Source: JALXCG01 sp026991065 [NCBI: Gemmatimonadota bacterium]
Lineage (GTDB): Bacteria; GCA-2686955
Length of the DNA: 15,951 nucleotides
NCBI GenBank assembly: GCA_026991065.1
Contig: JALXCG010000570.1
Location: 1-15,951 of the forward strand
Direction: 5' to 3'
The notes below the pieces were generated by a model. The model worked only from the letters and a program-made list of their open reading frames with translations. It was not told the origin of the DNA and did no database searches. Numbering within the stretch: the stretch's first letter is position 1; every line of letters starts with the position of its first letter. Made by a program: the position numbers and the translations under genes. This document shows positions 661-15,951 of the stretch, in pieces.

Positions 661-714
661 CGTGGTTCTCCTCTTGCCTAGTCATGATCGGACGCTGAAG
701 CTCTGTGAGGTTCT

Positions 715-1170: not shown

Positions 1171-1200
1171 GCTCCTCGCCTTCCGAGAATCGTCGTGGTT

Positions 1201-1217
1201 CAACCGCGCGGCGGTTG
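1201..1217 (-). other. Short perfect hairpin in the pnp-dut gap
   Basis: CAACCGC and GCGGTTG form a perfect 7-bp stem around a 3-nt loop. A second, weaker inverted repeat (GCACT/AGTGC, 1248-1262) lies just upstream on the minus strand. Neither is followed by a T-run on the minus strand, so neither looks like a classical intrinsic terminator. They may be an RNA-processing or stability element between the pnp and dut messages, or chance in GC-rich DNA. Confidence 0.25.
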
Positions 1218-1310
1218 ACTCCGGCTGTACGGCGAACCTCTTGCCATGCACTGCCGGAGTGCCGTCCAACCGTATCGGGTGGCGGCCAACCGCGACCGTG
1301 GAGTAGTCCT

Positions 1311-3431
1311 CTAGGAGCTTTCGGTTTCTTGGTTCTCTTCCTGCTCTGCCAGAACGGCCATTGCCATGCGCCGTGACAACGAGATCTTGCCGCCGGCATC
1401 GATCCCCTTGACCTGTACCGGAATGATCTCATCCTCGGAGACCACATCGCCGACGCTGGCCACGCGATAGTCCTCGAGTTCCGAGATGTGGCAAAGGCCT
1501 TCGCGGCCAGGCAGGATCTCCACAAACGCACCGAAGGGCATGATCGAGGTTACCCGCCCGTGATAGATGCGACCAATCTCGGGATCCTCCGTGAGATCAC
1601 GAATGGTCTGCAAGGCCTGCTCCGAAGCAGCTCGGGTAGGTGCCGCGATGACAACGCGGCCATCATCATCGACATCGATCTTGGATCCCGTGTCGGACGA
1701 GATCTTACGAATCATCTTTCCACCTGGGCCGATAATGTCGCGGATCTTGTCTTTGGGGACAAAAATTGCCACGACCTTGGGCGCGTGCTCATTGAGTTCG
1801 GCTCGCGGCTCGGACAGGCATTTCGCCATCTCTCCCAGAATGTGATTGCGACCATCCCGCGCCTGGGCGAGAGCCGATCGAAGGATTTCAAAAGTGATTC
1901 CGCCCAGTTTTGAATCCATCTGAAACGCGGTGATTCCGTCCGCAGTTCCCGTGACTTTGAAGTCCATGTCTCCCAGGTGATCTTCCGCACCCAGAATATC
2001 AGACAGGACAACCGGCTCGTGGCCTTCCGCTGTCACCAGTCCCATGGCGATGCCGGCGACCGGTGCTTTGATGGGGACACCCAGGTCCATCATCGCCAGC
2101 GAACCGCCGCACACAGAGGCCATGGAGGAGGAACCGTTGGACTCGGTGATTTCCGAGACCAGGCGCAAGGTATAGGGGAAATCATCATCGGAAGGGATGA
2201 CCGGCAACAGGGCGCGCTCAGCCAAGTGGCCGTGGCCGATCTCACGCCGTCCGGGGCCACGATTGGGACGCGCCTCACCGACCGACCAAGCGGGGAAGTT
2301 GTAGTGCAGCATGTAGCTCTTCTTGTACTCCCCTTCGAGTTCTTCCATGAGTTTCTGGTCACTCTTGGTGCCGAGCGTGCCCACAACCAGGGCTTGCGTT
2401 TCGCCGCGCGTGAAGAGAGCGGAGCCATGGGTCCTGGGCAGGATCCCGACTTCGCAGGAGATCGGGCGGATGTCGCGGGGGCCGCGACCATCCAATCGCT
2501 TGCCTTCGTTGATAATTCGCCCGCGTACCGTCTTCTTTTCGATCTCGCCGAGGATCTGCGAAATCGCTGCGGCTTGATCAGGAAAAGATTCCTTCAGGGC
2601 TTCCTGCACTTCGTTGCGAAGAGCAGCCCACGCCTCTTGGCGAGCCAGTTTGTCGGCAATAAAAAGAGCGGCCGCGGCGCGATCGCCGACCTGTGCATAA
2701 ACCGCCTCACTGATCTCAGGAGAGATCTCTTCCTTGGTCACTGAGCGCTTTGTTTTTCCCACGGCAGCGCGCAACTCCTCCTGGAGATCCAGCAACTTCT
2801 GAATCCATCGATGCGCGAATTCGAGCGCATCGACCAGCACGTCCTCGCTGACCTCTTTGCAGCCCCCTTCGACCATGGTGATGCTCTCGCGGGAGCCGGC
2901 AACCACCACATCCAGGTCACTGAACTCCAACTCAGCAAAAGTCGGATTGAGGATCAACTCCCCTTCGATGCGCCCCACGCGGACACCCGCAATGGGCGTT
3001 TCGAACGGGATGTCGGAAATGAGCAGCGAGGCTGCTGCTCCGGTAAGCCCGAGAACGTCAGCGTTGTTCTGCGCATCCGACGACAATACGGAGAGTGAAA
3101 CCGCGGTCTCACTTTTGTAGCCGTCGGCGAAATTGGGACGCAGGGGACGGTCAATCATGCGGGCGACCAATGTCTCCGTCTCGCCCATGCGCCCTTCCCG
3201 CTTGAAGAATCCCCCCGGGATCCTGCCTGCGGCATAAGCCTTTTCACGGTAGTCAACCGTCAATGGAAAGAAACCGCGGTCAACGCCCCCCTCTTTGCTG
3301 CCCACCGAGCAGGCCAGCACGACTGTTTCTCCGAATCCAATCATCACAGCGCCATCGGCTTGCCGGGCGATCTTGCCGGTCTCCATCCAGAGTGTTTTTC
3401 CCCCAAGATCGGTCTCTACGCGTTTATACAT
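1311..3431 (-). CDS. pnp: Polyribonucleotide nucleotidyltransferase (PNPase)
   Basis: Trimeric 3'-5' phosphorolytic exoribonuclease that degrades mRNA to nucleoside diphosphates and can add tails in reverse. From the ATG at 3431 the protein is 706 residues, the usual size. In order it has a first RNase PH domain (about 5-145, with FFKREGR at 76-82), an all-helical linker domain (about 240-310), a second RNase PH domain (about 315-540), a KH domain (about 553-612, GPGGK at 568-572) and an S1 domain (about 620-690, ending KISLSRR). The catalytic segment [11 protein letters not shown] (483-493) keeps the Asp residues matching E. coli D486, D490 and D492. An acidic tail follows the S1 domain. The frame is open 43 codons further upstream, but that stretch is not PNPase-like. 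The ATG at 3431 has GGAG 8 nt upstream. It follows rpsO, the classic rpsO-pnp order. Confidence 0.97.
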
Positions 3432-3770
3432 TCGTTTCTCCGTGTTCTCGCAGCCGCGGACTGTTTCGTCGCAGCGGAAGAACATACAGGTCGTATCCAA
3501 GCCGGAAGTTCCGCTTCCATTGTGCTTGAATCGTGAAATGCGGTTGGGCATCGGGCGCAACCGCTGAAAGTCTGGCGCAAGTTCTGTTGCTCCTGCTCAC
3601 CATCCGTTCCCCGCTACTCTCGCCAGAACAGCAACCGCAACCAACTCTGCCTTTGGGGTGGTCCACGGGTTCGGAGGAAAGAAACGGGGTCGAATGATGA
3701 GCCTGAATTCTATTTGCGACAGAGCGGGGACCTAACGCCCCCGAAAGAAGAGGATTGCTGCGGTCGTCAA
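3432..3770 (-). promoter_or_regulatory. Long rpsO-pnp intergenic region / pnp leader with inverted repeats
   Basis: This 339-nt stretch holds no credible gene. On the minus strand it has several hairpin-capable repeats: GCGGTTG/CAACCGC (3540-3546 with 3558-3564, 11-nt loop), TCTGGCG/CGCCAGA (3571-3577 with 3621-3627, long loop) and GGAAG/CTTCC (3504-3518). A weak CGGGG/CCCCG stem follows rpsO (3725-3743) with no T-run, so it is a poor terminator. A TAGAAT hexamer occurs shortly after rpsO but without a good -35 box. In E. coli the pnp leader is a double-stranded RNase III target used in PNPase autoregulation. A similar role here is inference from the position and the repeats. Confidence 0.35.
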
Positions 3771-4040
3771 CTACTTGCGCAGACCGAGCGACTTGATGAG
3801 CGCACGGTATCCTTCGACATCCCGCCGTTTTATGTAAGCCAGGAGCCGACGCCGCTGACCAACCATCTTGAGCAGACCACGGCGTCCCGCGTGATCCTTG
3901 GGATGTTGTTTGAAATGAGATTGCAGGTCGTTGATACGCCTGGTGAGAAGCGCCACCTGAACTTCGGTGGAGCCGGTATCGGTTTCATGTTTCCGATATT
4001 CGTGAATGGTCTCTTGAATGCGCTCAGAACTAAATGGCAT
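3771..4040 (-). CDS. rpsO: 30S ribosomal protein S15
   Basis: Primary binding protein of the central domain of 16S rRNA, needed early in assembly of the 30S platform. From the ATG at 4040 the product is exactly 89 residues, the standard S15 length. It carries the family signature: [19 protein letters not shown] (18-36), [16 protein letters not shown] (42-57) and [12 protein letters not shown] (63-74), ending IKSLGLRK. The frame is open 26 codons further upstream, but those codons cover the leader hairpin and are not S15. AAAGGA lies 8 nt before the chosen ATG. The gene has its own promoter at the end of the preceding glycosyltransferase gene and is followed by pnp. Confidence 0.98.
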
Positions 4041-4068
4041 CGCCAAAATCCTTTCGAGAACGGTGACA

Positions 4069-4105
4069 CGATTTGGCCCGCGATGCGGGGCCAAACGCCA
4101 AATCG
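4069..4105 (-). promoter_or_regulatory. Structured rpsO 5' leader with two alternative pairings (possible S15 autoregulatory element)
   Basis: The minus-strand leader has tandem copies CGATTTGGC and GTTTGGCC that compete for one downstream arm, GGGCCAAATCG. Pairing A is TTTGGCCC with GGGCCAAA plus GC/GC, with one bulged C and an ATC loop (4072-4095). Pairing B is CGATTTGGC with GCCAAATCG, 9 perfect pairs (4097-4105 with 4069-4077), enclosing CCGC-ATC-GCGG and leaving an 8-nt bulge. The element ends about 28 nt before the rpsO ATG. S15 is known to repress its own translation through leader structures that differ between bacterial groups. The pairings are seen in the sequence; control by S15 is inference. 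There is no T-run, so it is not a standard terminator. Confidence 0.45.
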
Positions 4106-4117
4106 CATAAGCATCCA

Positions 4118-4146
4118 TCTATAGCATTCGATGCAAGGTGAGTCAA
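4118..4146 (-). promoter_or_regulatory. Sigma70-type promoter for rpsO
   Basis: On the minus strand TTGACT (4141-4146, 5 of 6 to consensus) is separated by 17 nt from TATAGA (4118-4123, 4 of 6), and the spacer ends in TGC, an extended -10 element. The predicted start near 4111 gives a leader of about 70 nt containing the hairpin described separately. The -35 box overlaps the stop codon of the upstream glycosyltransferase gene (TGA, 4143-4145). This is the best promoter match in the window. Confidence 0.6.
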
Positions 4147-5171
4147 TTCGCAATCTCCAAGTGGCGGAGTCGATCCGCTGCGCTCTCTCCCGCGACGACC
4201 AGAGCCGCAATGATCAGTGCCCAAGAGAGCAGCATCTCCGCCCCCGCCGCTCGTAGCGCAAAGCACAGTCCGGCGCTTCTTACACAAAACTGCAAGAACC
4301 CACCGGATGATCGCTCGTAGAGGAGCAATGCAGTTACTGTCAGGAAGACGGCGAGTGTCTGTGCAGGACCGTTCAAGATGGCGGCACCGATGATCGCAAG
4401 AGGCAAAACAGCGATGGCGATTCGGGCAACGGCTTGTTGCCTTGTCGTTAGGTAGTTATCGAAGCGCCGATCTTCGACATAGAGGCGACACCACAGTCGA
4501 CCCCGATGGAGGTGGTTCCGGAAGTTCTTCCACGCAGTATCGGGAAAGTGGTGGCCGACAATGAGTTCCCGATCCAGCAGGATCCGTCCACGGCATGCCA
4601 GGCGGCGTCCCAGCTCAACATCTTCGAGATCTGCGCCGGAATAGATCTCACTAAAACCGCCGGCATCAAGGAATGCGGCGCGCCGCACACAGGACATGGA
4701 GCCCCATATCCAGTTGATCTCCTGAACTTCGGTCAGGGCGTGGTAAGACCATGCCTGAAGTGCCTTGTAGCGTGGCCAGAACCCGGTATTGATCGGGGTT
4801 CTGGCGTAGACACCAACAACGGCGACCACGTCTTCCTGCTGCATGGCAGATTCTACGCGAGCCAATAGATCCGCCGGTGGTGCCGTGTCAGCATCCAAGA
4901 AAAGAACCCAGGCGGCCCGAGCCTGTCGAACTCCTGCGTTGCGTGCTTTCGCAGGTCCTCCGCGAACCGGCTGGCGGATCGGTTCATAACCGGCTTCCAG
5001 AATGCGCTTTGCGGTACCATCGGTTGATGCATCGTCAACGAAAAGGTATTCGATTTTGTCTCGGTGGTGCAGTTGTGCCAGGGCCTGCAAGAGAGGCTCC
5101 AGCGTTGCGCTCCCGTTGTAGACTGGGATCACAATCGAAAGCAGCGGCGTTTCGGTTCTATTCGACATCAT
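4143..5171 (-). CDS. Family 2 glycosyltransferase with C-terminal membrane segments
   Basis: Transfers a sugar from a nucleotide-sugar donor, probably at the inner face of the cytoplasmic membrane. The 342-residue product opens with the GT-A pattern LLSIVIPVYNG (10-20) and FVDDAST (44-50). It then shows GPAKARNAG (72-80), the metal-binding DXD in FLDADTAP (91-98) and the acceptor-side DLEDVELGRRL (181-191). Hydrophobic stretches at about 248-268, 270-286 and 312-328 look like membrane helices. The start is either of two adjacent ATG codons (5171 or 5168); the first gives an ATGA overlap with the stop of the radical SAM gene, implying translational coupling. It is the last gene of the five-gene cluster. 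Donor and acceptor are unknown. The membrane tail would suit a lipid acceptor, but this is inference. Confidence 0.88.
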   Translation of the reverse strand: MMSNRTETPLLSIVIPVYNGSATLEPLLQALAQLHHRDKIEYLFVDDASTDGTAKRILEAGYEPIRQPVRGGPAKARNAGVRQARAAWVLFLDADTAPPADLLARVESAMQQEDVVAVVGVYARTPINTGFWPRYKALQAWSYHALTEVQEINWIWGSMSCVRRAAFLDAGGFSEIYSGADLEDVELGRRLACRGRILLDRELIVGHHFPDTAWKNFRNHLHRGRLWCRLYVEDRRFDNYLTTRQQAVARIAIAVLPLAIIGAAILNGPAQTLAVFLTVTALLLYERSSGGFLQFCVRSAGLCFALRAAGAEMLLSWALIIAALVVAGESAADRLRHLEIAN

Positions 5172-6319
5172 TCCGCCGTCTTCCTCGTCAGGGAGCGGAA
5201 GATGGCGGCGGCGAATTGGCCTCCCCGCAAAGCAACCGTGGCCAGCGCCGGGCACTCCTCAGAACATCCAGCGGCACACTCGCCAGCCCTGATTCGCCTG
5301 ATTCGACTGCGCGCGGCTTCGGCGGCGAGGAGACTCCTCAAATCGCAATCGAATGCACGCAGATCTCCCATATCTCCTCGGTTCCCGAGAGTCTCGCAGG
5401 AGTCAACCTTTCCGGTGGGCCCAATGACGAGGAACCTCTCCCCCGCCACGCAGCCACGCACCCCGACGCCGCCCTTGAGGGTATGAAGAACGCGGCGATA
5501 AACCTCTCTTTGAGCGATTTCGGTGGCCCGGTTCAACAATCCCGAATCGGTCCAGCAGTGATCGGTGTTTGCCAGCGCCTTGAGTGCTCTGGCGTAGGAC
5601 TTCGTCGCCGGGTGTGCTGCAGGGTCTCGCGGCTCACCGCGCAGACGCAAAAGTTCCCACCCGTCAAGGCGCGGGAAAGTGGTCGCCAGGAAGGCGCCCA
5701 GTTCCTCCAGTCGAGTCTCGTTACGGGCGGAGACGCAGGTGTCTACGTAGAAACGCAAGTTGGTGTGCGAGGCCCGCATGCGGGAAAGAACCCGGAGCGA
5801 CAGAAGAGTCTTCTCCCATGAGCCGGGACGGCGACGAATCTGGTCATGCAGCGTGCCGACCCCGTCCAGGGAGATTCGCCACGAGATTGTCTGTCGAGGC
5901 AGTGTTCGCAGCAAATCCCCAGCGATTTCTTCGACGAGATCCGAGTTTAGCCCGTTGCTGTGGATCGAAAGAGATGGCACTCCGGAGCTTTCTGCGATCG
6001 CTTGTACAGCCGGGACAAAATCGGGCCTGAGTGTTGGCTCGCCACCCGTGATCGTTAGTTGCAGCAGCCCGCGCAACTGGGACCCGATGCGCGACAATTC
6101 CGGAGGGGTCAGCAGGTGTCGGTCGCTCTCGGGACGAACAAAACAGTGCCGGCAGTTCTGATCACACTTGGAGTTCAGAAAGAGAACAAGATACCCGACC
6201 GGTGGATGCCCAAGTTGCGCCCGCAACCAACGCCAACCGATGCGCAATGCGGCCGGCGTGCGCAGCGTCCCACTCTGTGGTATGCGAATATCGGCTTCGG
6301 GACTGCGGGTTACTCTCAT
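5168..6319 (-). CDS. Radical SAM enzyme with a SPASM-like C-terminal cluster-binding domain
   Basis: Member of the radical SAM superfamily, which cleaves S-adenosylmethionine at a [4Fe-4S] cluster to start radical chemistry. The 383-residue protein has the cluster motif CDQNCRHC (C52, C56, C59), then TITGGEPTLRPD (89-100, the SAM-binding GGEP), IHSNG (119-123) and WRISLDG (147-153). The C-terminal part has C290-x12-G-x4-C308, the first SPASM signature, then C325 and CAAGCSEEC (C348, C352, C356). The spacing differs from textbook SPASM, so the number of auxiliary clusters is uncertain. An N-terminal region of about 45 residues precedes the barrel. Start and stop are both coupled by ATGA overlaps to the neighbours. 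SPASM enzymes often modify peptides, but others act on sugars or small molecules, and no precursor peptide is visible here. Confidence 0.87.
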   Translation of the reverse strand: MRVTRSPEADIRIPQSGTLRTPAALRIGWRWLRAQLGHPPVGYLVLFLNSKCDQNCRHCFVRPESDRHLLTPPELSRIGSQLRGLLQLTITGGEPTLRPDFVPAVQAIAESSGVPSLSIHSNGLNSDLVEEIAGDLLRTLPRQTISWRISLDGVGTLHDQIRRRPGSWEKTLLSLRVLSRMRASHTNLRFYVDTCVSARNETRLEELGAFLATTFPRLDGWELLRLRGEPRDPAAHPATKSYARALKALANTDHCWTDSGLLNRATEIAQREVYRRVLHTLKGGVGVRGCVAGERFLVIGPTGKVDSCETLGNRGDMGDLRAFDCDLRSLLAAEAARSRIRRIRAGECAAGCSEECPALATVALRGGQFAAAIFRSLTRKTAE

Positions 6320-7899
6320 GCGCGATTGGGTAGCGGCGCCGACTGTGCCGCTGGGGACTGTGGCTCCGCTTCCGGCAATGGACGCCTAGTATAAGGATTG
6401 CATAGGGGACCAGAGAGCGGAGAATGCTCACCGCCGGTGAGAGATTCGGGGGGGCGGAAGGCGCGCCGGGACATTGCGATGCGCCGCAGCAAAAAAAACG
6501 CGGTTCGCAGGGCGCGCAGAGGCTCTCTCAGATCACCGAGTCGACGAAACAGGTAACTCGGGGAGAGATAGAATTCGCGCCGAACGCGGCGCAGGAACTT
6601 GCTTATTTCGACGGGGTCTAGTCCGGTTCCATCCACCACATAGCGATTGAAGCTGTAGTCGCGAAAATCAGCGGTGAGGAACTGCCCAGAGCGAGCCAGT
6701 TCGGCAAAGAGCGGTGTACCGGGATGCGGCGTCGCGCACATGAGCACCGCCATGTCGAGCGGCAGGGAGAGAATCAAGCGCCGGGTCTTCTCCAGTGAAG
6801 CGAGGGTTTCGCCGGGATGTCCCACGACAAAACTGCCATTGGTCCTTATCCGCAGTTTTCGGCAGGTTGCAACCACGCTTCGGATCATGGCTGGTGTGAC
6901 GTAAGGCTTCCCTAGTTTCGCCAGCATCTCTGGATCGCCCGACTCGATGCCGAAAGTGATCAGAAAAAGCCCGGCAGCACGCATCTTCCGAAGCAGTTCC
7001 GCATCAAGGGTGTCGATGCGCGCGTTACAGATCCAGCGGATCTTCAGTTTTCTGCGCATGATTTCGTCGCAGACTGCGAGCACCCACGAACGATTGGCGG
7101 TAAAAAGATCAGCTTGGAAAAGAAACGAACGAATGCCTTGGTCGCGAACAATTGCTTCGACTTCTGCGATAAGTGAGGCCGGCGAGCGCAGTCGGGCACG
7201 ACGACCGTGCATCCCCGGGGCCAGGCAAAATGAACAGTCGAAGGGGCACCCGCGGCCGGCGAGAACCAGCGTATAGAGGTCGCCATCGGGCAAGCGATAC
7301 TGCCGGGCGTCAAGAAGATCTCGTGCCGGAGGAGCGAGGTCATCCAGATGCTGGATCGGCGCTTGAGGGGGCACTGCAAGGATCCGGCCTGCCCTGTTTC
7401 GGGACACGGTTCCAGGGGGATCCGCTCCTCCATCGCCAGCCATGATTCGCCGGAGCAGCTCCGCGCAGACCATCTCCGGTTCGCCGGTGACGCAGACATC
7501 GATGGGGGAATCGGCGGTCAAAAGCGAATGGGGCAGAGCCTGGGCATGCTGCCCAAAGGCGACGGTCAGCGAGCCAGCGGAGTGAAGGACTTGAGCGAAT
7601 TCCAGATCGGAGTCCAGTGTCGGACTGGCCACGTTCAGAACAGAGAGGTTGGGCGCAAAAGAGCTGACGATCTCACGGAAGGCAGCGGTAGAAAGGCTTT
7701 GCACCGGCCCATCAACAATCCGCAGGAGAAGTGGTTCGGATGAATCTATCTCAACAGCAGCGGCGCGCATGGCTCCGGCGATCAAGCCAAGGGAGAGCGG
7801 AAAACGCGGAGGCTCGAAGGTCACGTTCAGAGGGATCAGCACGCGCCCCTCTTTGGTAATGCTCTCGCGTGGAGTCGGATTCACAAGCAGTACTCTCAT
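6316..7899 (-). CDS. B12-binding-domain radical SAM protein
   Basis: The 527-residue protein has the two-domain layout of cobalamin-dependent radical SAM enzymes (BchE-like and class B methyltransferase group). The N-terminal Rossmann-like domain runs from MRVLLVNPTP, through RFPLSLGLIAGAMR (32-45), to FGQHAQALPHSLL (115-127) and VCVTGEPE (135-142). The radical SAM barrel has GRGCPFDCSFC (C218, C222, C225), FQADLFTANR (261-270) and FGIESGDPEMLAKLG (316-330). Known members methylate unreactive carbons, close rings or epimerise; the substrate here is not predictable. After about residue 480 there is a Pro-, Ser- and Arg-rich tail of about 45 residues that does not look like a folded domain. The start overlaps the carbamoyltransferase stop and the stop overlaps the next radical SAM start, each as ATGA. 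Confidence 0.87.
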   Translation of the reverse strand: MRVLLVNPTPRESITKEGRVLIPLNVTFEPPRFPLSLGLIAGAMRAAAVEIDSSEPLLLRIVDGPVQSLSTAAFREIVSSFAPNLSVLNVASPTLDSDLEFAQVLHSAGSLTVAFGQHAQALPHSLLTADSPIDVCVTGEPEMVCAELLRRIMAGDGGADPPGTVSRNRAGRILAVPPQAPIQHLDDLAPPARDLLDARQYRLPDGDLYTLVLAGRGCPFDCSFCLAPGMHGRRARLRSPASLIAEVEAIVRDQGIRSFLFQADLFTANRSWVLAVCDEIMRRKLKIRWICNARIDTLDAELLRKMRAAGLFLITFGIESGDPEMLAKLGKPYVTPAMIRSVVATCRKLRIRTNGSFVVGHPGETLASLEKTRRLILSLPLDMAVLMCATPHPGTPLFAELARSGQFLTADFRDYSFNRYVVDGTGLDPVEISKFLRRVRREFYLSPSYLFRRLGDLREPLRALRTAFFLLRRIAMSRRAFRPPESLTGGEHSPLSGPLCNPYTRRPLPEAEPQSPAAQSAPLPNRA

Positions 7900-9710
7900 G
7901 CGAGAGGCCCCCCGGTGACAGACTGCGATTGCGCAGTTAGTTGAGGGGCAAGCAGTTCATCTACGGAATCGCGCTTTTCAATCCAATAGTCATCCAGGGC
8001 AAGATGACGCAGTCCTGAGTTCTGGAGCAATTCAAGTCCATCCTTGGCTGAACAAACCATTGGGTGACCGTGGAGATTGAGGGACGTATTCAAGACCGCG
8101 CCGATGCCGCGGAGTCGATGAAACTCTGTGATGATTCGATGAAACTCGGGAAAGAGTTCGGAAGTGACGATCTGCGGTCGCGCGGTCGCATCCGCCCGGT
8201 GAATCGCGGCCTGGATTTCGCTACGGTGCGGTGTGCGTGTTGCGAACGTGCGCATCATGTGCGGGGAACTCGCTCCGGGATGCATCCGCAAGTATCGGGA
8301 CGCATGTTCTGCTGCGATTGCGGGCGCAAAGGGCATCCAGAAATCTCGGTTTTTGACCGCTTGGTTCAAGATGTCGATGTTCTCCAGCCGAGATGGGTCA
8401 GCCAGGATGGAGCGGTTTCCCAGGGCACGCGGACCGAATTCCATGCGGCCCGCGGCACGCGCCACAATCCCACCCGCTGCCAGATGACGGGCGATCTGTC
8501 CGTAAATCCCGCTTCCGAGCTTGCGCACCCGATAGCGGCTCCGATCCACGCTCCTCAGGGCGGCGTGCAGATCATCGCCAACTTCTGGGCCCCAGCAAGA
8601 GGTTCCGACCGGTGTACCAAAACGCTCCCCCTGAAGGAGCGATCTGCTTTCTTCACGATTCGCCAGCAAAGCCGCGCCCAGGGCCACGGATTCATCTCCC
8701 GGAGCGGGAAGAAAGAACACCGCCGACACCCACGGCGACTCAGCAATCACGCCATTGGCCTTTACATTAAGGAAGACGCCACCCGCCGCGCACAGATGGC
8801 GTTCACCCGTTGCACGAAGAGCCGCTTCGGCCCATTCCCGAAGGCGGACTTCCGCTAGGTACTGAATCGCATAGGCGATGTCGTCGAACCGCCGGCGGCC
8901 ATAGCGGCGGGTAATGTGATTGAGGAATGCATTGCCGATGAGTCCGGTTCGGTTGCGGAACTCCAGCCCATCAAGCTCCACGAAGCGAAGAAAGTCCTGT
9001 GCCAACTCCGCCGCCCGCGCGGGCGATGCATATGGAGCCAGCCCCATCACTTTTCCTTCGTGCTCCCAGGGTTTCATCCCGAGCGCCCGGGTAACCCGGC
9101 TGTACATTGAGCCCAAGGAGTGAACGCTGGGTGTAGCGGCGATGCGTCGCAGGGTGTTGCCGGACCCGATGGAGACTGTGGCCGCCAGGCCATCTCCAAG
9201 TCCATCGCAAGTCAGGACCGCAGCATTCTCGGGAAAAGGACGCAGATAGTAGGCGGCTGCGGCGTGGCACTCGTGGTGATCAAAATAGCGAATGCGGCGT
9301 GGCCGGATGCCGATCTCTTCGAGCCAGGGCACCTGCACGCGCCGGGTTTCACGGCGCCGCTGCTGGCTGGTCACCGAGCGGTAGATTGCACGCAATGGCG
9401 ACGACCCGAGCACCGACAGCGGGATGAACCGTGAGGCGAGACCGGCGGCACGAATCAGCGGGCGATACTCTTCGGCCTGTGCCCGGCGTGGTTCGAAGCG
9501 CTCACAGAGAGTGCCAATGGCCAGAGTATCGATCTCCTCGGGCGCGACTCCGCCGATACTCAGGACTGACTGGATTGCAAGTGCAGGGAAACCGGCATCC
9601 GCTTTGAGTCGGCTGAGCCGCTCCTCAGCAACGGCTGCGACGACCCGCCCCGAGTCGACCAAACAAGCCGCCCCAGTATGACTCAAATTGATGCCTAGGG
9701 TACAGGACAT
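7896..9710 (-). CDS. NodU/TobZ-family O-carbamoyltransferase
   Basis: Transfers a carbamoyl group from carbamoyl phosphate, through a carbamoyl-adenylate, to a hydroxyl of a sugar or natural product; TobZ, NodU and CmcH are known members. The 604-residue product has the ASKHA-fold N-terminal domain starting TLGINLSHTGAACLV (4-18). It keeps the metal-site motif DHHECHAAAAYY (144-155), CDGLGDG (168-174), GMKPWEHEGKVMGLAPY (211-227), AAGGVFLNVKAN (308-319) and FLPAPGDESVALGAAL (333-348). The C-terminal YrdC-like domain has GRMEFGPRALGNRSILADP (421-439) and NRDFWMPFAPAI (454-465). Length and motifs match an intact enzyme. It starts 5 nt after the GT-C/TPR gene and overlaps the B12 radical SAM gene. 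Between glycosyltransferases the likely acceptor is a sugar hydroxyl (inference). Confidence 0.93.
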   Translation of the reverse strand: MSCTLGINLSHTGAACLVDSGRVVAAVAEERLSRLKADAGFPALAIQSVLSIGGVAPEEIDTLAIGTLCERFEPRRAQAEEYRPLIRAAGLASRFIPLSVLGSSPLRAIYRSVTSQQRRRETRRVQVPWLEEIGIRPRRIRYFDHHECHAAAAYYLRPFPENAAVLTCDGLGDGLAATVSIGSGNTLRRIAATPSVHSLGSMYSRVTRALGMKPWEHEGKVMGLAPYASPARAAELAQDFLRFVELDGLEFRNRTGLIGNAFLNHITRRYGRRRFDDIAYAIQYLAEVRLREWAEAALRATGERHLCAAGGVFLNVKANGVIAESPWVSAVFFLPAPGDESVALGAALLANREESRSLLQGERFGTPVGTSCWGPEVGDDLHAALRSVDRSRYRVRKLGSGIYGQIARHLAAGGIVARAAGRMEFGPRALGNRSILADPSRLENIDILNQAVKNRDFWMPFAPAIAAEHASRYLRMHPGASSPHMMRTFATRTPHRSEIQAAIHRADATARPQIVTSELFPEFHRIITEFHRLRGIGAVLNTSLNLHGHPMVCSAKDGLELLQNSGLRHLALDDYWIEKRDSVDELLAPQLTAQSQSVTGGPLA

Positions 9711-9715
9711 GGGAT

Positions 9716-12064
9716 CTATTCCGGTCCGTCGCTGCTGGAGTCGACGGCTTTGGAAGGAGTTGATTGATGGGATTCAAGGGCGGCCAATGCTTGGCGCGCC
9801 GGCTGAAAGTCGTTGCGCAGACGCAGACAAGCCTCCAGTTGCTCACGCGCAAGGTGGTCATCCCCTTCCCGGAGCGCCAGGGCCGCGAGACCGAAAAGTG
9901 GTTCTGGACGCTGCGGCGACAGTAGCAGTGCCTTTTCGTAGCAGTGTCTCGCTTCCATTGTATGCCCCTGAGCCGCACGCACGTTGCCCAGGTCGACCAA
10001 CGCCTCAAAGCATCCCGGATCAGCATCCAGAACAGCGGCCAGTTCCCTGCCAGCGGCTTGCAGTTCTCCCGCGCGCCCAAGTACGGATCCCAGCCCCAGC
10101 CGCGCCTCGCGCCGCTCAGGGTTGATCGCCAGAGCGCGGCGGTACTCCTGCGCCGCGGCCTGCAGCCGGCCCTGCTGAGCCAGCACCGCCCCACGATCGG
10201 TGAGTACGCCGACCAGATCCGGCTGGTACTCGACGGCGACTTCGCAGATCGCCAGCGCGCGATCGAGTGCCTCCAAAGCAGGGCCGGTCGCGCCGAGTTT
10301 TGCGTAGGCAAGGGCTTCGTTTCGGATTGCTCGTACGTAGTTTGGCTGGAGCTTTTGCGCCCGTTGAAACCACGGCAGAGCCTCTTTGGGGCGTTCAGCT
10401 TCGAGGAAGAGCGCACCCAAATTGTTGGCTGCCAGCGGATCATCCGGATGCAGTGAAAGCTCTTTACGGAAAGCGGCTTCAGCCTCGTCCGCCTGGCCTG
10501 CGCGGCGGGCGATCACACCGAGATTGAGCCAGGCGCGCGGGTAGCTCGGATCCTCTGCGAGGACCTTCTGCAGGGCCGCTTTCGCCTGAGCATCCCGCTG
10601 CAATTCGAGGAGTGAAACCGCCCTCGCGAATTCAGCCTGGGTGGGGGCATGGACATCCAGGCCAAACCAGTCATTCCACGTCAGCAGGAGTATGGCCAGA
10701 CTGACCCCGAGCGCAGGCAGACGTCCAAGCTGAGGTGAGTGGGCGGCGCGAACAAAGCCATTTCGCGGACCGGGGTCGACGAGGAAAAGCGGTGCCAGCG
10801 GAATTGCACAAGCCAGTACGGGCATGCGGTACCGAGTAGCAACGAAGTAGGAGACGACGGTCAGTGAATAGATCACAATGAAAAGCAGGGGCCAGCGGCG
10901 ATCGCGTTGCAGCAAAAGTCCTCCGCCGAGCCCCAGGGACCACAATAGAGCGTCCCATCCGGGACTAAAGAGACCTGCCCACCAGTGCCCCGCTACGTTC
11001 TCGGTGATGACCACGTCCAAATCTTGATTGTTCGCGATGCGTGGTCGTCCCATGAAGAGGAGCGCCTTTCGTCCCCAGAGGCGGAGTGCCGCCAGAGGCT
11101 GCTCTTGCCAATAGTGCAACCCCTTCTCAACGAAGAAGCGGGAGACCTCTGATGGGCGCAGTGTTCTCCCACGTGCTTGTTCTGCCATCCGTACACAATC
11201 GTAATACTCCCAGTTCCCGCCGATGATCTTGAAGCCCGCCGGGCTTCCGAACGCACCGTCGGAGTCTGGGTTGTTGCCTGTGTAGAAGGCGATTCCGCCT
11301 TGGGAGGAGATCAGAACCAGGTCATGTCCTACGTAATAGTTGCGAACTGTGACCGGGAGTATGGGCAAGGCCAGAGCGAGGACAAAGAGAGAGGTGCGCA
11401 CCACGCCGGTCCGGAACCCGCGTCGTGAGGTTTCGCCCCACAGGATCAGGAGCACCGCCAGCGCCAAAAAGGGCAATACCGTTGGCCGAGTGATCGCGCT
11501 GAGTCCCCAAAGGAGACCACTGAGCGCGTAGCGCCAGCCCGAATTCAGACGCTGGCCACGCAGCAGGACAAGCATGGCAGCCAGGTCGAAACAGACGATC
11601 CATGCGGTAAACAGGACCTCACCCTCGAAATAGATAAAGCTCCCCGTCCAGCCCAGGAGGGCGATCGCTACCAGTGCAGTTGAGCGCTGGCCGCCCAGTT
11701 CGCGGGTGATTGCTCCTCCGAGCAGTGCGGAGAGAAGCCCAAGCCCCCACTGCAGCCAACGCGCCCAGACGAGGGGATTCAGCCCAATAACACTCAGTGC
11801 CGCCAGCCAGTACGGGTAGAAAGGAGCCTTAAAATAGGGTGCTGCGGCCGCCGGATTGCTGCCGGTGCACAACTGACGCGCTTGAGCCAGATAGGCCTGC
11901 GGATCGTTTTGGGGAGCCCAAAAGCGCGCCGATTCCATGTAGGCAGCACCGTATTGGACACGCAAGAATGCCCCGAAGGCGAGCACTGCGACAATGCCAC
12001 CGGCAAAGAGGAAACGGGTCGGGAAAGCGACCGCGAGGCGTCGGGATGAGCACGAACGCGACAT
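9716..12064 (-). CDS. GT-C (family 39-like) membrane glycosyltransferase fused to a TPR domain
   Basis: The N-terminal half (residues about 20-470) is a multi-pass membrane protein with GT-C hallmarks. There is an acidic first loop, NDPQAYLAQAR, then KAPFYPYWLAAL (a PPLYPLLL-type motif), SAITRPTVLPFLALA, VRNYYVGHDLVLISSQGGI with FYTGNNP, and RYRMPVLACAIPLAPLF. These enzymes move a sugar from a polyprenyl-phosphate carrier to an acceptor outside the cytoplasmic membrane. The C-terminal 300 residues hold about eight TPR units, for example RAWLNLGVIARRAGQADEAEAAFRKELSLHPDDP-type repeats from about 475 to 765, probably a protein- or glycan-docking scaffold. The ATG at 12064 gives 782 residues; a GTG two codons upstream (12070) is possible, and no good ribosome site precedes either. 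It starts 24 nt after the chaperone gene and opens the cluster. Confidence 0.85.
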   Translation of the reverse strand: MSRSCSSRRLAVAFPTRFLFAGGIVAVLAFGAFLRVQYGAAYMESARFWAPQNDPQAYLAQARQLCTGSNPAAAAPYFKAPFYPYWLAALSVIGLNPLVWARWLQWGLGLLSALLGGAITRELGGQRSTALVAIALLGWTGSFIYFEGEVLFTAWIVCFDLAAMLVLLRGQRLNSGWRYALSGLLWGLSAITRPTVLPFLALAVLLILWGETSRRGFRTGVVRTSLFVLALALPILPVTVRNYYVGHDLVLISSQGGIAFYTGNNPDSDGAFGSPAGFKIIGGNWEYYDCVRMAEQARGRTLRPSEVSRFFVEKGLHYWQEQPLAALRLWGRKALLFMGRPRIANNQDLDVVITENVAGHWWAGLFSPGWDALLWSLGLGGGLLLQRDRRWPLLFIVIYSLTVVSYFVATRYRMPVLACAIPLAPLFLVDPGPRNGFVRAAHSPQLGRLPALGVSLAILLLTWNDWFGLDVHAPTQAEFARAVSLLELQRDAQAKAALQKVLAEDPSYPRAWLNLGVIARRAGQADEAEAAFRKELSLHPDDPLAANNLGALFLEAERPKEALPWFQRAQKLQPNYVRAIRNEALAYAKLGATGPALEALDRALAICEVAVEYQPDLVGVLTDRGAVLAQQGRLQAAAQEYRRALAINPERREARLGLGSVLGRAGELQAAGRELAAVLDADPGCFEALVDLGNVRAAQGHTMEARHCYEKALLLSPQRPEPLFGLAALALREGDDHLAREQLEACLRLRNDFQPARQALAALESHQSTPSKAVDSSSDGPE

Positions 12065-12088
12065 GGCCACCAGCCGGAACGCGATCGC

Positions 12089-13291
12089 CTAGTTCGTGGC
12101 CTGAATGGTGACCGGAATCTCACTCTTCAGGGAGTCGACCAGGGCGGTGTACAGCTCTCTTTGCGCGCGGTTCTTGAGTGTCTTGCGGAGTTGAGCTTGA
12201 ACGGCATCAAACTCGGTATAGGTGCCCGGATGGTAGACTTGAATGTAAAAGACTTCCCAGCCTTGCGAACTCTTCCTCGGCGGCAGGACCTCGTGTAAGT
12301 GGGCATTTCTCAGTGCTTCCGCTTGAGATTCAGGAAAATCGCTCAAGCGCCGCAGTCCTGAATCGCCCCCTCCCCGGCTCTCACTGCTTTTCCCCAGCCG
12401 TTCCTTGACATCAGCAAAACCGCCGTCCTTGATTTCGCGATACACCTCTTGCGCTTCTTTTTCACTGTCCACCACAAAAGAAAACCCGCGCACCCGGGGC
12501 TCGCTATAGTAGTCCGTCGCACGATGGGTGTCGTAATAGTGGCGAACCTCCTCGGGAGTAATCTCCACCTTTTCCGTGACCCGACGCTGAAGGACGTACT
12601 GGGCGAGGAAGCGGTCGATGTTGTGGTTCAGTTCCTCTCGAATGTCGCCTTCGAGTTGCAGTCCGGAACTGCGTGCATAGTCCGCAAGGAGTTTCTCTTC
12701 CGTCATCTGTTTGAGAACCTCCATACGTCGCTCCGGCCTCCGCTCAATCTCAGATTGCGCCACACCGTCCAGGCGCTGAATAACACGATCCAGCGCCTCG
12801 ACCGTAATCATGTGGCCACCAACGGTCGCGGCGATACGCGGCTGATTGGACTCGAAGCACCGCGTAATACCCTTGCTGGCACGCTCGTAATAGGCGGACT
12901 GGGGGAATTCCAGAAGAATGACTTGATACTCATTCGCGGCCCGCACCGTGTCACCCGTACTTTCCAGTGCCCGTGCGAGACGGTAGTGCAGCGCATCGCG
13001 TTGCGGTGCATCTTTCGGCAGCAATTCAAGTGCGTGAACGAGTGCTGCTGCGGCCTCGCTGCCGCCATTCTCGTGAGACTCGTAGATCCGAGCCAACTCC
13101 AACCAAGCCGCTGCGGTCTGACCGGCGTCCTGGCCCGTGGCGATCTGCTCCTTGAGTTCTGTGATGGCCTGGCTTTCAAGCCCACGTCGAAGCAATGCCT
13201 GCGTTGTGGCATGTAATTCGGAGGCGGAAAGCTGGTTGGCGAAAGAGCCACCGGTAAGAAGGAGAGCGGCGGCCATTATGCTGAGCAACAT
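12089..13291 (-). CDS. Exported SurA/PpiC-like chaperone with N-terminal TPR-like helices
   Basis: A 400-residue protein with a signal peptide (MLLSIMAAALLLTGGSFA, likely cut before NQLSA), so it acts in the periplasm or at the membrane surface. Residues about 24-148 are helical with TPR-like periodicity, such as AAWLELARIY and YRLARALESTGDTVRAANEY. Residues about 152-262 resemble the SurA N-terminal chaperone region. Residues about 264-355 are a parvulin-type PpiC domain followed by a final helix. Active parvulins usually carry a His near the start (RARHI-like) and another near the end (GYHI-like). Here the matching segments read EPRVRGFSF and GWEVFYIQ, so the rotamase may be inactive and the protein mainly a chaperone. 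The ATG at 13291 is chosen because it creates the signal peptide; a TTG-started extension to 13405 does not. It may assist secretion or assembly of envelope proteins. Confidence 0.85.
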   Translation of the reverse strand: MLLSIMAAALLLTGGSFANQLSASELHATTQALLRRGLESQAITELKEQIATGQDAGQTAAAWLELARIYESHENGGSEAAAALVHALELLPKDAPQRDALHYRLARALESTGDTVRAANEYQVILLEFPQSAYYERASKGITRCFESNQPRIAATVGGHMITVEALDRVIQRLDGVAQSEIERRPERRMEVLKQMTEEKLLADYARSSGLQLEGDIREELNHNIDRFLAQYVLQRRVTEKVEITPEEVRHYYDTHRATDYYSEPRVRGFSFVVDSEKEAQEVYREIKDGGFADVKERLGKSSESRGGGDSGLRRLSDFPESQAEALRNAHLHEVLPPRKSSQGWEVFYIQVYHPGTYTEFDAVQAQLRKTLKNRAQRELYTALVDSLKSEIPVTIQATN

Positions 13292-13412
13292 GGGAAAGCA
13301 GTCCTGAGTGAATGGCAGGTGTGGCTGGAGATCCAGAGGTTGGCGAGGGGTGCCGGGAGTTTTCGCTGGAGTTGTAGAACCGACTTGTGAAACGGGAGAG
13401 AACAACCTTATG

Positions 13413-13442
13413 ACGCTATTGGGTGCGCAGGGTTCCAGTCAA
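13413..13442 (-). promoter_or_regulatory. Candidate promoter for the PpiC-like chaperone gene
   Basis: TTGACT (13437-13442) overlaps the stop codon of the kinase gene, and TAGCGT (13413-13418) follows after 18 nt. The -10 hexamer matches consensus at only 3 of 6 positions, but the same TAGCGT appears in the candidate promoter upstream of the kinase. It would give a leader of about 115 nt. The remaining gap 13292-13412 shows nothing else I can support. Confidence 0.28.
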
Positions 13443-14011
13443 GCCATCATGATCTGCATGAGCGTTCCAGCGGCAAGAGGAATGCGGAAATTATCATCGA
13501 TGGGAATGGGCAGGAGTTCGGCGATCGTCGCCATGGCCGCACCAGCCAGGCCCACGTTGATGGTGACGCCCGGGGTCACCATGGCCACCACGATGCAAGT
13601 CAAGAAACAGGCCACGCTTCCTTCTACTGACTTACCCAGATAGCGCAAGCGCCCATACGACTTACCAACGAGTGCCGCCGCTGTGTCACCAAGAACAAGG
13701 AAGGAGATCGCGGCGATCGCCACCGGCTTGGAAAAGCAGAGAATGCACGCGGTCGCGGCAAACATGACGAAGGTGGCACCGTTGAGTTCGCGGGTTTCGT
13801 GCCGGCGGAGAAAGCGGCCGAAGATTCCCATGAAAACGCGGTTCCAATAGCGAGAACGCAGTTTCACGATGTCGGCCCAGAAAACGAGGAGGGTGGCGAG
13901 GAACAGGAGCCACCGAGACAGCGATTCCGAAGGGATCCACGAGTAGAGGACGGGAATCGATATCGAGGCCAGATGGATCGATTTGCGCTTGAATTCTTGA
14001 ACAATGCCCAT
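13439..14011 (-). CDS. CTP-dependent polyprenol/dolichol/diacylglycerol kinase-family membrane protein
   Basis: A 190-residue integral membrane protein of the SEC59/DGK1/VTE5 family, which phosphorylates lipid alcohols (dolichol, phytol, diacylglycerol), usually with CTP. Recognisable motifs are FKRKSIHLASI (7-17), RHETRELNGATFVMFAA (70-86), LGDTAAALVGKSYGR (107-121) with GKSVEGS (126-132), and AELLPIPIDDN (164-174). About five to six hydrophobic segments cover most of the chain. The ATG at 14011 is forced, because the in-frame TAG just upstream (14019-14021 region) excludes any longer form. No Shine-Dalgarno site precedes it. The chemistry would suit making or recycling polyprenyl phosphate for the glycosyltransferases downstream (inference). 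The substrate may instead be phytol or farnesol. Confidence 0.85.
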   Translation of the reverse strand: MGIVQEFKRKSIHLASISIPVLYSWIPSESLSRWLLFLATLLVFWADIVKLRSRYWNRVFMGIFGRFLRRHETRELNGATFVMFAATACILCFSKPVAIAAISFLVLGDTAAALVGKSYGRLRYLGKSVEGSVACFLTCIVVAMVTPGVTINVGLAGAAMATIAELLPIPIDDNFRIPLAAGTLMQIMMA

Positions 14012-14233: not shown

Positions 14234-15951
14234 ATGAAGAAACGGCTATTGCTCGCCTTGCTGGCTGCTGGTTACGGCTCCGCAGGCACCGTGGAACTCG
14301 TTTGGGATTTCGAAGCTGGGATTCCCCCCGAGTATTTCGCCACCGACGACTGGGGCATTCGAGACGCGAGTTTTCAGCATGGTCCGCGTGCTGCCGCTGG
14401 AAGTGGCAGCCAGTGGTGTGGAACGCCGGTCGAAGATCTTTCTGAGTATCCCGGGCTTTCGGTGGCCAGTCTCACCACAAGTCCGATCGACCTGACTGAA
14501 CTCCAGTTCGCATCGCTCTATGTGAGTTGGGTGCAGTGGGCTGATTTCGAAGGCGTGGCGACGAACTTCGACGGCGCCCACCTGCTCATCAGCGCCAACG
14601 GCGGAACTTCGTGGGCAGTTGTCGACAGTCCGCCCGCGGGCGGCATTCAGCCCGCTTACGACGACAAGATCCTCGACAACGGGGGAACCCCGCTGTCGGG
14701 TAAGTGGGCATACTGTCACGACACCGTGAGCGGGGACGCGGGCCTTTCGACAGGAGAGATCCCAACCTACCGCGTACTCGGCCAAGCCAAGCCAGTGCAG
14801 ACAGCCAGCGGTGGTTCACCGGAGTGGCGCTCCGTGGCGACTGGAGATCTGATCGCGCTGGGTTACGTATCTCCCAGCGACACCATTCTGCTGCGCTGGC
14901 TTTTCGGTTCCGACACCCTGTCCGGTGGCGAAGGCTATTTCATCGATGATCTGCGCATCGCCGATTCCCCACCGGACTGCAAGATCCCGCCGAGCTTATC
15001 GGTCGATGTGCTCTCCGACACACCCGATACACTCTCCGAGTATGGCGTGAGCGCGGAGATCCTCCGGGTTTGCGCGGATATCGATGAGGACTCGGTGGTG
15101 CTCCACTACTGGAGCGATGTTCAGACCGACACAGTCGCGGTGATCATGGCCAATGAAGGAGGCGGTCATTTTACCGCATCGATCCCGGCTCAGCCGAACG
15201 ACACGGACGTCTGGTACTGGGTGTCCGCGTCTGACGTCGTCGGCAATTACACTCGATCCACCACCCGAACTTTCGAGGTGACCGATGCCATTACCCTGAT
15301 GTTGGATGATGGCCAGCCATTCTACGTCGACCCAACGTTTTTCGCCGCCGGAGATGGTCTTGCGGCTCGGTTCAGGGCGCCTGCCGCCGCCGATTCCTCC
15401 TACAACCTATACAAGGTGCAGGCCTATTTCTCCCGGCGGGGTCGGTTTGATCTTGGTGTCTGGAGGGGCGGCGATGAGGATGAGTCGCCCGCGGAACGGG
15501 TATTTACCAGCGGTCCCATGACCAACGATATCGACAATGGATGGTGGAGCTATGCTCTGGAGGACACCTCGCTGACCTTCTCGGGTGCGGCTCCGATCTA
15601 TGTGGGTTTCACTCTGGTCACCGGCGATTCGCTGGACAATCCCACCATTGCCTATGACGAAGTTCTGGACGACCCGGCAGCGAAGTGGATACTGGAGAAC
15701 AACGAATGGCATGTGGATGAATCGGGGCAGTCGGGCGAACTCATGATTCGACTCAAGGTGAAGGCCAGAGGCGGGACCGGTATCGGTGGCGAAGGCGCTG
15801 CGAGCGCTCTGCCGGCAACCTTTGCGGTGCATGGTAACTACCCCAATCCATTCAACCCGTGGACCGTCATTCGATATGATCTGGCCGCCGGTGCGGGTCC
15901 CGTGCCTGTTCGCGTAACGGTCTACGATCTGGCAGGGCGGAATGTCGCGAC
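14234..15951 (+). CDS. Secreted multidomain protein with a YPNPFNP C-terminal sorting-type domain (runs off window edge)
   Basis: The frame is open from the ATG at 14234 to the edge, 572 residues. GGAG lies 6 nt before the ATG. A signal peptide (MKKRLLLALLAAGYGSAG) is followed by a beta-rich domain (about 20-245) with DGAHLLISANGGTSW and GEGYFIDDLRI (F236-D239 within it), the style of jelly-roll modules in secreted proteins of FCB bacteria. An Ig/fibronectin-like module follows (about 255-350, with VWYWVSASDVVGNYTRSTT), then another beta-rich region (about 355-510) and a Gly/Ala-rich linker. The last part reads AVHGNYPNPFNPWTVIRYDL (N535-P542 within it) and VRVTVYDLAGRNVA. This is the FlgD-Ig/type A-like C-terminal module linked to type IX secretion or surface attachment in that group. 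No catalytic site is recognisable. It is transcribed divergently from the kinase and need not belong to the same pathway. Confidence 0.85.
   Translation, partial: MKKRLLLALLAAGYGSAGTVELVWDFEAGIPPEYFATDDWGIRDASFQHGPRAAAGSGSQWCGTPVEDLSEYPGLSVASLTTSPIDLTELQFASLYVSWVQWADFEGVATNFDGAHLLISANGGTSWAVVDSPPAGGIQPAYDDKILDNGGTPLSGKWAYCHDTVSGDAGLSTGEIPTYRVLGQAKPVQTASGGSPEWRSVATGDLIALGYVSPSDTILLRWLFGSDTLSGGEGYFIDDLRIADSPPDCKIPPSLSVDVLSDTPDTLSEYGVSAEILRVCADIDEDSVVLHYWSDVQTDTVAVIMANEGGGHFTASIPAQPNDTDVWYWVSASDVVGNYTRSTTRTFEVTDAITLMLDDGQPFYVDPTFFAAGDGLAARFRAPAAADSSYNLYKVQAYFSRRGRFDLGVWRGGDEDESPAERVFTSGPMTNDIDNGWWSYALEDTSLTFSGAAPIYVGFTLVTGDSLDNPTIAYDEVLDDPAAKWILENNEWHVDESGQSGELMIRLKVKARGGTGIGGEGAASALPATFAVHGNYPNPFNPWTVIRYDLAAGAGPVPVRVTVYDLAGRNVA

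What the first reader, a model, noticed from the sequence alone, without database searches (positions are those of the whole stretch)
4143..12064. Five-gene translationally coupled cluster: GT-C/TPR, O-carbamoyltransferase, two radical SAM enzymes, GT2
Three consecutive ATGA overlaps (7896-7899, 6316-6319, 5168-5171) and a 5-nt gap (9711-9715) join two glycosyltransferases, a NodU/TobZ-type carbamoyltransferase and two different radical SAM enzymes. Each family is known, but I do not recognise this set as a described pathway. Such tight coupling implies one product: probably a glycan, glycolipid or glycosylated metabolite that is O-carbamoylated and modified by radical chemistry, with the last sugar added on the outer side of the membrane by the GT-C enzyme. 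Gene order and motifs are seen; the product is inferred.
Basis: partly seen in the sequence, partly recalled or inferred. Interest (0 to 1): 0.65.

Follow-up and report, generated by a model that had tools for sequence, protein, structure and literature searches.

The report
Glycan-tailoring operon with two radical enzymes
A run of tightly joined bacterial genes probably builds and decorates a sugar structure on the cell surface, and its core trio (a sugar transferase and two radical enzymes) recurs in distant, barely studied bacteria with no known product.

Summary
In detail: five intact minus-strand genes, three ATGA overlaps, a 5-nt gap. A PPIase gene 18-24 nt upstream probably belongs to the same unit.

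As one conserved five-gene unit the reading fails so far. The only held same-phylum relative (G001) keeps kinase-like/PPIase/GT-C-TPR/carbamoyltransferase, then its contig ends; its 84%-complete assembly has no orthologue of the other three. I found the complete set nowhere else.

The inner trio (GT2, SPASM-type radical SAM, AprD4/HpnJ-like radical SAM) is a recurring module: GT2 lies within 5 kb of SPASM at 10 of 20 SPASM loci, against 4 of 75 carbamoyltransferase loci and 0 of 20 control regions. Four-base overlaps recur and G001 has a GT2-SPASM fusion. One distant contig carries a GT4-SPASM fusion, a half-carbamoyltransferase-SPASM fusion and a protein with five radical SAM domains, which supports one shared pathway.

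Most likely job: build, radical-tailor and O-carbamoylate a lipid-linked sugar, which the GT-C enzyme transfers outside the membrane. Chemistry, product and acceptor are inferred or unknown.

The parts
13439..14011 (-). Membrane protein; looks like a SEC59/phytol-kinase-type CTP-dependent lipid (polyprenol) kinase (motif recalled, not tested); possible carrier-lipid supplier
   Evidence: 76.6% identical and beside the PPIase gene in G001; no Pfam or NCBIfam hit
12089..13405 (-). PPIC-type peptidyl-prolyl isomerase with weak SurA-like N-terminal and TPR matches; 18-24 nt upstream of the GT-C gene
   Evidence: Rotamase_2 3e-11; 48% in G001 in the same order
9716..12070 (-). GT-C glycosyltransferase with C-terminal TPR array (784 aa), TMTC-like architecture; D56, K335, R413 and R415 invariant in 20 sequences
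   Evidence: model pLDDT 86, membrane part best matched by Pmt4, Z 22.6, 3.6 A over 342 residues; 54% in G001
7896..9710 (-). Class III O-carbamoyltransferase (Kae1-like + YrdC-like domains), 604 aa
   Evidence: Carbam_trans_N 7.5e-39, _C 7.9e-56; H145, H149, D169, D339 and H11 align with the GdmN iron ligands and base (my reading of the alignment; residues from PMC9633730 passages)
6316..7899 (-). B12-type radical SAM protein, AprD4/HpnJ-like, CxxxCxxC at C218/C222/C225, degenerate B12-binding-like N-domain
   Evidence: AprD4 Z 36.0, 2.5 A over 416 residues
5168..6319 (-). Radical SAM protein with a SPASM/twitch-like C-terminus; C52 C56 C59, C290-x12-G-x4-C308, C348 C352 C356 conserved
4143..5171 (-). 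GT2 glycosyltransferase (GT-A motifs D47, D93xD95, E183 D184, H207) with C-terminal hydrophobic segments
7896..7899 (-). ATGA overlap, carbamoyltransferase to B12-rSAM
6316..6319 (-). ATGA overlap, B12-rSAM to SPASM rSAM
5168..5171 (-). ATGA overlap, SPASM rSAM to GT2

Best explanation
The operon makes a radical-tailored, O-carbamoylated glycan or glycoconjugate for the outside of the cell. GT2 adds a sugar on the cytoplasmic face, probably to a polyprenyl-linked acceptor. The AprD4-like and SPASM-type radical SAM enzymes change sugar carbons (for example deoxygenation, epimerisation or decarboxylation). The carbamoyltransferase adds a carbamoyl group to a sugar hydroxyl through carbamoyl-AMP. 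The GT-C enzyme then moves the lipid-linked sugar to its final acceptor on the outer face, with the TPR array helping to hold that acceptor.

Shown here: families, intact motifs, gene order, coupling, and recurrence of pairs as neighbours and fusions. Inferred: substrates, order of steps, topology, acceptor.
For: GT2 near SPASM in 10 of 20 loci vs 4 of 75 carbamoyltransferase loci (p 1e-5) and 0 of 20 control regions (p 2e-4). B12-rSAM near GT2 in 7 of 17 GT2-centred loci vs 0 of 20 controls (p 0.002) and 7 of 75 carbamoyltransferase loci (p 0.003).

Four-base start-stop joints in distant genomes: GT2>B12>SPASM (L148), GT2>SPASM (L135), B12>SPASM (L251), B12>carbamoyltransferase (L172). GT2-SPASM fusion coupled to a B12-rSAM in G001:C30. 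GT4-SPASM and Kae1-half-carbamoyltransferase-SPASM fusions, NDP-sugar epimerase-like genes, a full carbamoyltransferase and a five-rSAM protein in G036:C110. A GT-C gene without TPRs lies within 5 kb of SPASM, GT2 and B12-rSAM in L148.

Closest solved relatives of the carbamoyltransferase include NovN and TobZ, which act on sugar parts of antibiotics (recalled; GdmN does not), and that of the B12-rSAM is AprD4 with its sugar substrate paromamine. The GT-C part resembles Pmt4 and OST enzymes.
Against: The full set was found only in this window. GT-C loci elsewhere do not carry the other families (0 of 20). The three closest SPASM homologues (L129-L131) show no GT2 or B12-rSAM neighbour, though their contigs are only 4.6-8.6 kb long. 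10 of 20 SPASM loci have no GT2 within 5 kb. The B12-rSAM/carbamoyltransferase association is not significant against controls (p 0.18). The best PDB match of the SPASM protein is a peptide enzyme (SkfB, 1e-7); BlsE is weak (5e-4). The highest-scoring carbamoyltransferases outside the phylum lack the other families as neighbours. No wet-lab data.
Confidence: 0.5

Rival explanations
1. Two neighbouring functions rather than one: a phylum-specific kinase/PPIase/GT-C/carbamoyltransferase unit, and a mobile GT2-SPASM-B12rSAM module that landed downstream of it, next to rpsO-pnp.
For: G001 keeps the first block but has no trio orthologue in its assembly; its rpsO-pnp is preceded by other genes. The trio members recur mostly without carbamoyltransferase or GT-C.
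Against: ATGA coupling of carbamoyltransferase to B12-rSAM in the window, a four-base B12-rSAM/carbamoyltransferase overlap in L172, and a carbamoyltransferase-SPASM fusion in G036:C110 link carbamoyl transfer to radical SAM chemistry.
Confidence: 0.25
2. A soluble modified glycoside or peptide-derived metabolite (mycofactocin-like: SPASM maturase plus GT2) rather than a surface glycan.
For: GT2 and SPASM score weakly against MftF (79.7 bits) and MftC (38.5 bits); SkfB is the best PDB match of SPASM.
Against: Scores far below the cut-offs (280, 265); no room for a precursor gene between the overlapping genes; a membrane GT-C enzyme in the operon; NDP-sugar epimerase-like genes beside two relatives. 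Precursor peptides elsewhere in the genome were not searched for.
Confidence: 0.15
3. Hopanoid side-chain pathway (HpnH/HpnI/HpnJ-like trio).
For: HpnJ is the best NCBIfam model for the B12-rSAM (157.1 bits), and HpnI and HpnB hit GT2 weakly (26.4 and 23.7 bits).
Against: 157.1 against a cut-off of 577.6; no squalene-hopene cyclase (PF13243, E 1e-5) in 2 of 2 genomes of the phylum, each about 84% complete.
Confidence: 0.03

Closest known systems
TobZ/NovN/GdmN class III O-carbamoyltransferases
   Same: Both domains, iron ligands and general base conserved
   Different: Sits in a glycosyltransferase/radical SAM operon; acceptor unknown
AprD4 radical SAM diol dehydratase (aminoglycoside pathway)
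   Same: Best PDB sequence match 9e-25 and best fold match, Z 36.0, 2.5 A over 416 residues
   Different: 117.7 bits against a family cut-off of 500; reaction untested
TMTC/PMT protein O-mannosyltransferases
   Same: GT-C domain followed by a TPR array; membrane part best matched by Pmt4. PMC7801869 (passages seen) reports full-length prokaryotic homologues of TMTC
   Different: Acceptor and sugar unknown; protein glycosylation not shown
Mycofactocin MftC + MftF
   Same: A SPASM-type radical SAM enzyme paired with a GT2
   Different: Both proteins far below the family cut-offs; no room for a precursor gene between the coupled genes

Membership tests
Class III O-carbamoyltransferase | Kae1-like and YrdC-like domains | tested here: met
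   PF02543 7.5e-39 and PF16861 7.9e-56
Class III O-carbamoyltransferase | Iron ligands H133, H137, D156, D333 and base H27 (GdmN numbering) | tested here: met
   H145, H149, D169, D339, H11 by position in the alignment; residues from PMC9633730 passages
AprD4 diol dehydratase | NCBIfam equivalog score (cut-off 500) | tested here: not met
   117.7 bits; shared fold only
HpnJ / hopanoid side chain | Equivalog score (577.6) and a squalene-hopene cyclase in the genome | tested here: not met
   157.1 bits; 0 of 2 genomes, each about 84% complete
Radical SAM/SPASM | CxxxCxxC motif | tested here: met
   C52, C56, C59 in 23 of 23 sequences, window included
Radical SAM/SPASM | SPASM auxiliary-cluster cysteines (recalled pattern C-x9-15-G-x4-C plus further C) | tested here: inconclusive
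   C290-x12-G303-x4-C308 and C348, C352 (23 of 23) and C356 (22 of 23) conserved, but Pfam SPASM is not hit in the window protein at E 0.01
Mycofactocin MftC/MftF | Equivalog scores (265 / 280) | tested here: not met
   38.5 and 79.7 bits
TMTC-like GT-C/TPR | GT-C domain followed by a TPR array | tested here: met
TMTC-like GT-C/TPR | Odd number of TM helices, TPR outside the cytoplasm | tested here: inconclusive
   11 TM is the count I favour from model helices and loop charges; 12 is not excluded
TMTC-like GT-C/TPR | Transfers sugar to protein | not testable with these tools
   Needs biochemistry

The most novel reading that the evidence does not exclude
A bacterial, TMTC-like protein O-glycosylation system: a dedicated lipid kinase, GT2 and GT-C/TPR enzyme, with a periplasmic PPIase partner, attach to exported proteins a sugar that has been deoxygenated or otherwise remodelled by two radical SAM enzymes and O-carbamoylated, i.e. 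antibiotic-style sugar tailoring used on a glycoprotein.
Probability: 0.12. Interest if true: 0.8.

Novelty: new variant of a known kind. Interest (0 to 1): 0.5.

Why it matters
Radical SAM sugar chemistry and O-carbamoylation are known mainly from antibiotics (recalled). The recurring GT2/SPASM/B12-type radical SAM module, and natural fusions of a glycosyltransferase or half a carbamoyltransferase to SPASM enzymes, suggest that similar chemistry is used on glycans in other uncultivated bacteria. They also give compact, testable enzyme sets.

Tried and rejected
Hopanoid pathway: rejected. Mycofactocin: scores far below cut-offs. Five-gene set around the 34 other carbamoyltransferase relatives of the named-genome scan: not found; several of those contigs end close to the gene. 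G001 rpsO-pnp locus as the missing half of its cluster: not so. Five-gene set via SPASM and GT-C hits on the same contig, by eye over the printed rows: none but the window; not all GT-C rows were printed. Foldseek on the whole GT-C/TPR model was swamped by TPR proteins. PDB sequence search with its membrane part gave nothing at E 1. Phyletic link of high-scoring carbamoyltransferases (>400 bits, a threshold set after seeing the scores) to module genomes: 2 of 12 vs 0 of 51, p 0.03, weak. The 51 are the 60 genomes without G000, G001 and seven with SPASM hits (G013, G025, G030, G035, G036, G041, G043); G041 and G043 are among the 12. Eight further carbamoyltransferase regions were scanned after the counts and are not in the 75: L285 and L286 have a B12-rSAM within 5 kb.

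Caveats on the counts. Set A: the top 20 non-own rows. Set B: 40 regions around carbamoyltransferase matches (48 rows printed), own genome and G001 loci among them. Set C: the 35 loci. Set D: the top 20 GT-C rows outside G000/G001. Set E: 17 of the 19 GT2 rows with 200 bits or more that are not in alignment A3 (one of the other two lies in set A, one was not fetched); L255 and L256, also fetched, scored under the GT2 threshold and are not counted. All 18 genomes were picked because they (or the window) carry the SPASM gene, so set E is unbiased only as to position. The profiles were trained on loci of sets A-C, so scores there are partly self-referential. Many contigs end inside the 5 kb. The 20 control regions were positions I picked by hand on contigs of four module genomes, not drawn by a script.

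Literature: one search listed 15 of 1,585 papers, 12 of 29, all 8; two searches found none, one each. I saw listings with the start of abstracts only; passages only of PMC7801869, PMC9633730 and PMC8670742. Searches were background searches.
Full report
What is in the window. Five intact ORFs lie head to tail on the minus strand: GT-C/TPR (12070-9716), carbamoyltransferase (9710-7896), B12-type radical SAM (7899-6316), SPASM-type radical SAM (6319-5168) and GT2 (5171-4143). The three ATGA overlaps and the 5-nt gap are as reported. Upstream, a PPIase gene ends 18-24 nt before the GT-C start, and a small membrane protein (14011-13439) precedes it; downstream come rpsO (Pfam) and ORFs that read as pnp, dut and asnS (by eye). 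The window is the whole of contig C570 of an 84%-complete metagenome-assembled genome whose phylum has two held genomes.

The parts. The carbamoyltransferase has both domains, and the GdmN iron ligands and general base (PMC9633730, passages only) fall on H145, H149, D169, D339 and H11 in the alignment. Its best solved relative is decarbamoylnovobiocin carbamoyltransferase (NovN, 6e-63), then GdmN, 7xb6 and TobZ. The B12-type radical SAM protein keeps C218/C222/C225; its N-domain is not hit by Pfam's B12-binding model at E 0.01. Its AlphaFold model (16 sequences, pLDDT 83) matches AprD4 best (Z 36.0, 2.5 A, 416 residues), ahead of MgmA (29.8). It is not an AprD4 or HpnJ equivalog: 117.7 vs 500 and 157.1 vs 577.6 bits. 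The SPASM protein has eight cysteines conserved across 23 sequences (22 of 23 for the last), a radical SAM motif plus a SPASM/twitch-like set. GT2 keeps its GT-A motifs across 11 sequences (D184 in 82%) and has C-terminal hydrophobic segments. The GT-C/TPR model (20 sequences, pLDDT 86) gives Pmt4 as the best match of its membrane part (Z 22.6, 342 residues, 3.6 A), then OST, AglB and PglB chains at about Z 19-21, and OGT-type TPRs for the C-terminus. From helices and loop charges I favour 11 TM helices with the TPRs outside, as described for TMTCs (PMC7801869, passages only), but 12 is not excluded.

Conservation in the phylum. Its best matches to the other three are distant: B12-rSAM 34%, SPASM 30%, GT2 100.8 bits against 378.9 for the window's own. 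Its rpsO-pnp locus has other neighbours. So half of the cluster is conserved; the other half is either untestable, because of the contig break, or absent.

Recurrence of the parts. SPASM relatives at E <= 1e-20 occur in 50 of 386 genomes, own included. Within 5 kb of the 20 best non-own ones: GT2 in 10, B12-rSAM in 4, GT-C in 1, carbamoyltransferase in 0. Around 75 carbamoyltransferase genes (40 + 35): B12-rSAM in 7, GT2 in 4, SPASM in 3, GT-C in 1 (G001). Around 20 GT-C genes: none of the other families. Around 17 GT2 genes taken by GT2 score: B12-rSAM in 7, SPASM in 3 (all). In 20 control regions of 11 kb from four module genomes: 0 GT2, 0 B12-rSAM, 0 SPASM, 1 carbamoyltransferase, 1 GT-C. 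Fisher tests: GT2 near SPASM vs controls p 2e-4, vs carbamoyltransferase loci p 1e-5; B12-rSAM near GT2 vs controls p 0.002, vs carbamoyltransferase loci p 0.003; B12-rSAM near carbamoyltransferase vs controls p 0.18, not significant. Training and selection caveats stand under Tried and rejected. L148 comes closest to the window: SPASM, GT2, B12-rSAM and a GT-C gene without TPRs (PMT_2) within 5 kb, but no carbamoyltransferase.

Coupling and fusions elsewhere. Four-base start-stop overlaps recur in distant genomes: GT2>B12>SPASM in L148, GT2>SPASM in L135, B12>SPASM in L251, B12>carbamoyltransferase in L172 (gene). G001:C30 has a B12-rSAM coupled to one ORF with GT2 and SPASM-type radical SAM domains. 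G036:C110 has, in one run: a GT4-radical SAM-SPASM fusion; the YrdC half of a carbamoyltransferase; a Kae1 half fused to radical SAM-SPASM; two NAD-epimerase/GDP-mannose-dehydratase-like genes; another SPASM enzyme; a full carbamoyltransferase; and a 2358-residue ORF with five radical SAM, four B12-binding and one SPASM match. These fusions are the strongest evidence that carbamoyl transfer, glycosyl transfer and radical chemistry belong to one pathway. Each rests on a single draft-assembly contig, and the members are distant from the window's proteins.

What speaks against one pathway. The full five were found nowhere else. Half of the SPASM loci (10 of 20) have no GT2 within 5 kb, among them the three nearest relatives (L129-L131, on contigs of 4.6-8.6 kb). 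The highest-scoring carbamoyltransferases outside the phylum (G220 44%, G105 41%) have no GT2, SPASM, B12-rSAM or GT-C profile hit in the roughly 20 kb fetched around them, although both genomes carry trio members elsewhere. GT-C relatives keep no such company (0 of 20).

Mechanism. Most likely: GT2 starts or extends a lipid-linked sugar; the two radical SAM enzymes change sugar carbons; carbamoyl-AMP chemistry caps a hydroxyl; the GT-C enzyme transfers the result outside. The sugar, the order, the acceptor and the need for cobalamin are unknown. The kinase-like gene and the PPIase fit a lipid carrier and an exported protein acceptor, but the kinase assignment is a recalled motif with no family hit.

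Novelty. Full-text searches of the held open-licence library (listings only, two of them cut) showed no described pathway with this set; most subscription papers are not in that library. Each family is known, so I rate it a new variant of a known kind.

Noticed in passing
L050 (G036:C110) 1387-19287: Natural fusions GT4-radical SAM-SPASM and Kae1-half carbamoyltransferase-radical SAM-SPASM, with the YrdC half as a separate gene, plus a 2358-residue ORF with five radical SAM and four B12-binding matches.
   Followed up: partly
L097 (G001:C30) 2019-5884: B12-rSAM coupled by a 4-base overlap to a single ORF that fuses GT2 with a radical SAM domain about 30% identical to the window's SPASM protein.
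   Followed up: partly
L047 (G000:C408) 1-6528: Another carbamoyltransferase of the same genome abuts or overlaps a TMEM260-like/TPR gene; a GT2-formyltransferase fusion lies nearby.
   Followed up: partly
L046 (G000:C381) 2004-5307: A third carbamoyltransferase gene lies near an ORF that reads like S-adenosylmethionine synthetase (by eye).
   Followed up: no
window 14234-15949: Secreted-type protein with a NYPNPFNP-type C-terminal tail, as in T9SS/FlgD-like sorting domains (by eye, recalled); runs off the window.
   Followed up: no
G036, whole genome: 40 B12-rSAM-like matches at E <= 1e-20 in one 4.3 Mb genome.
   Followed up: no
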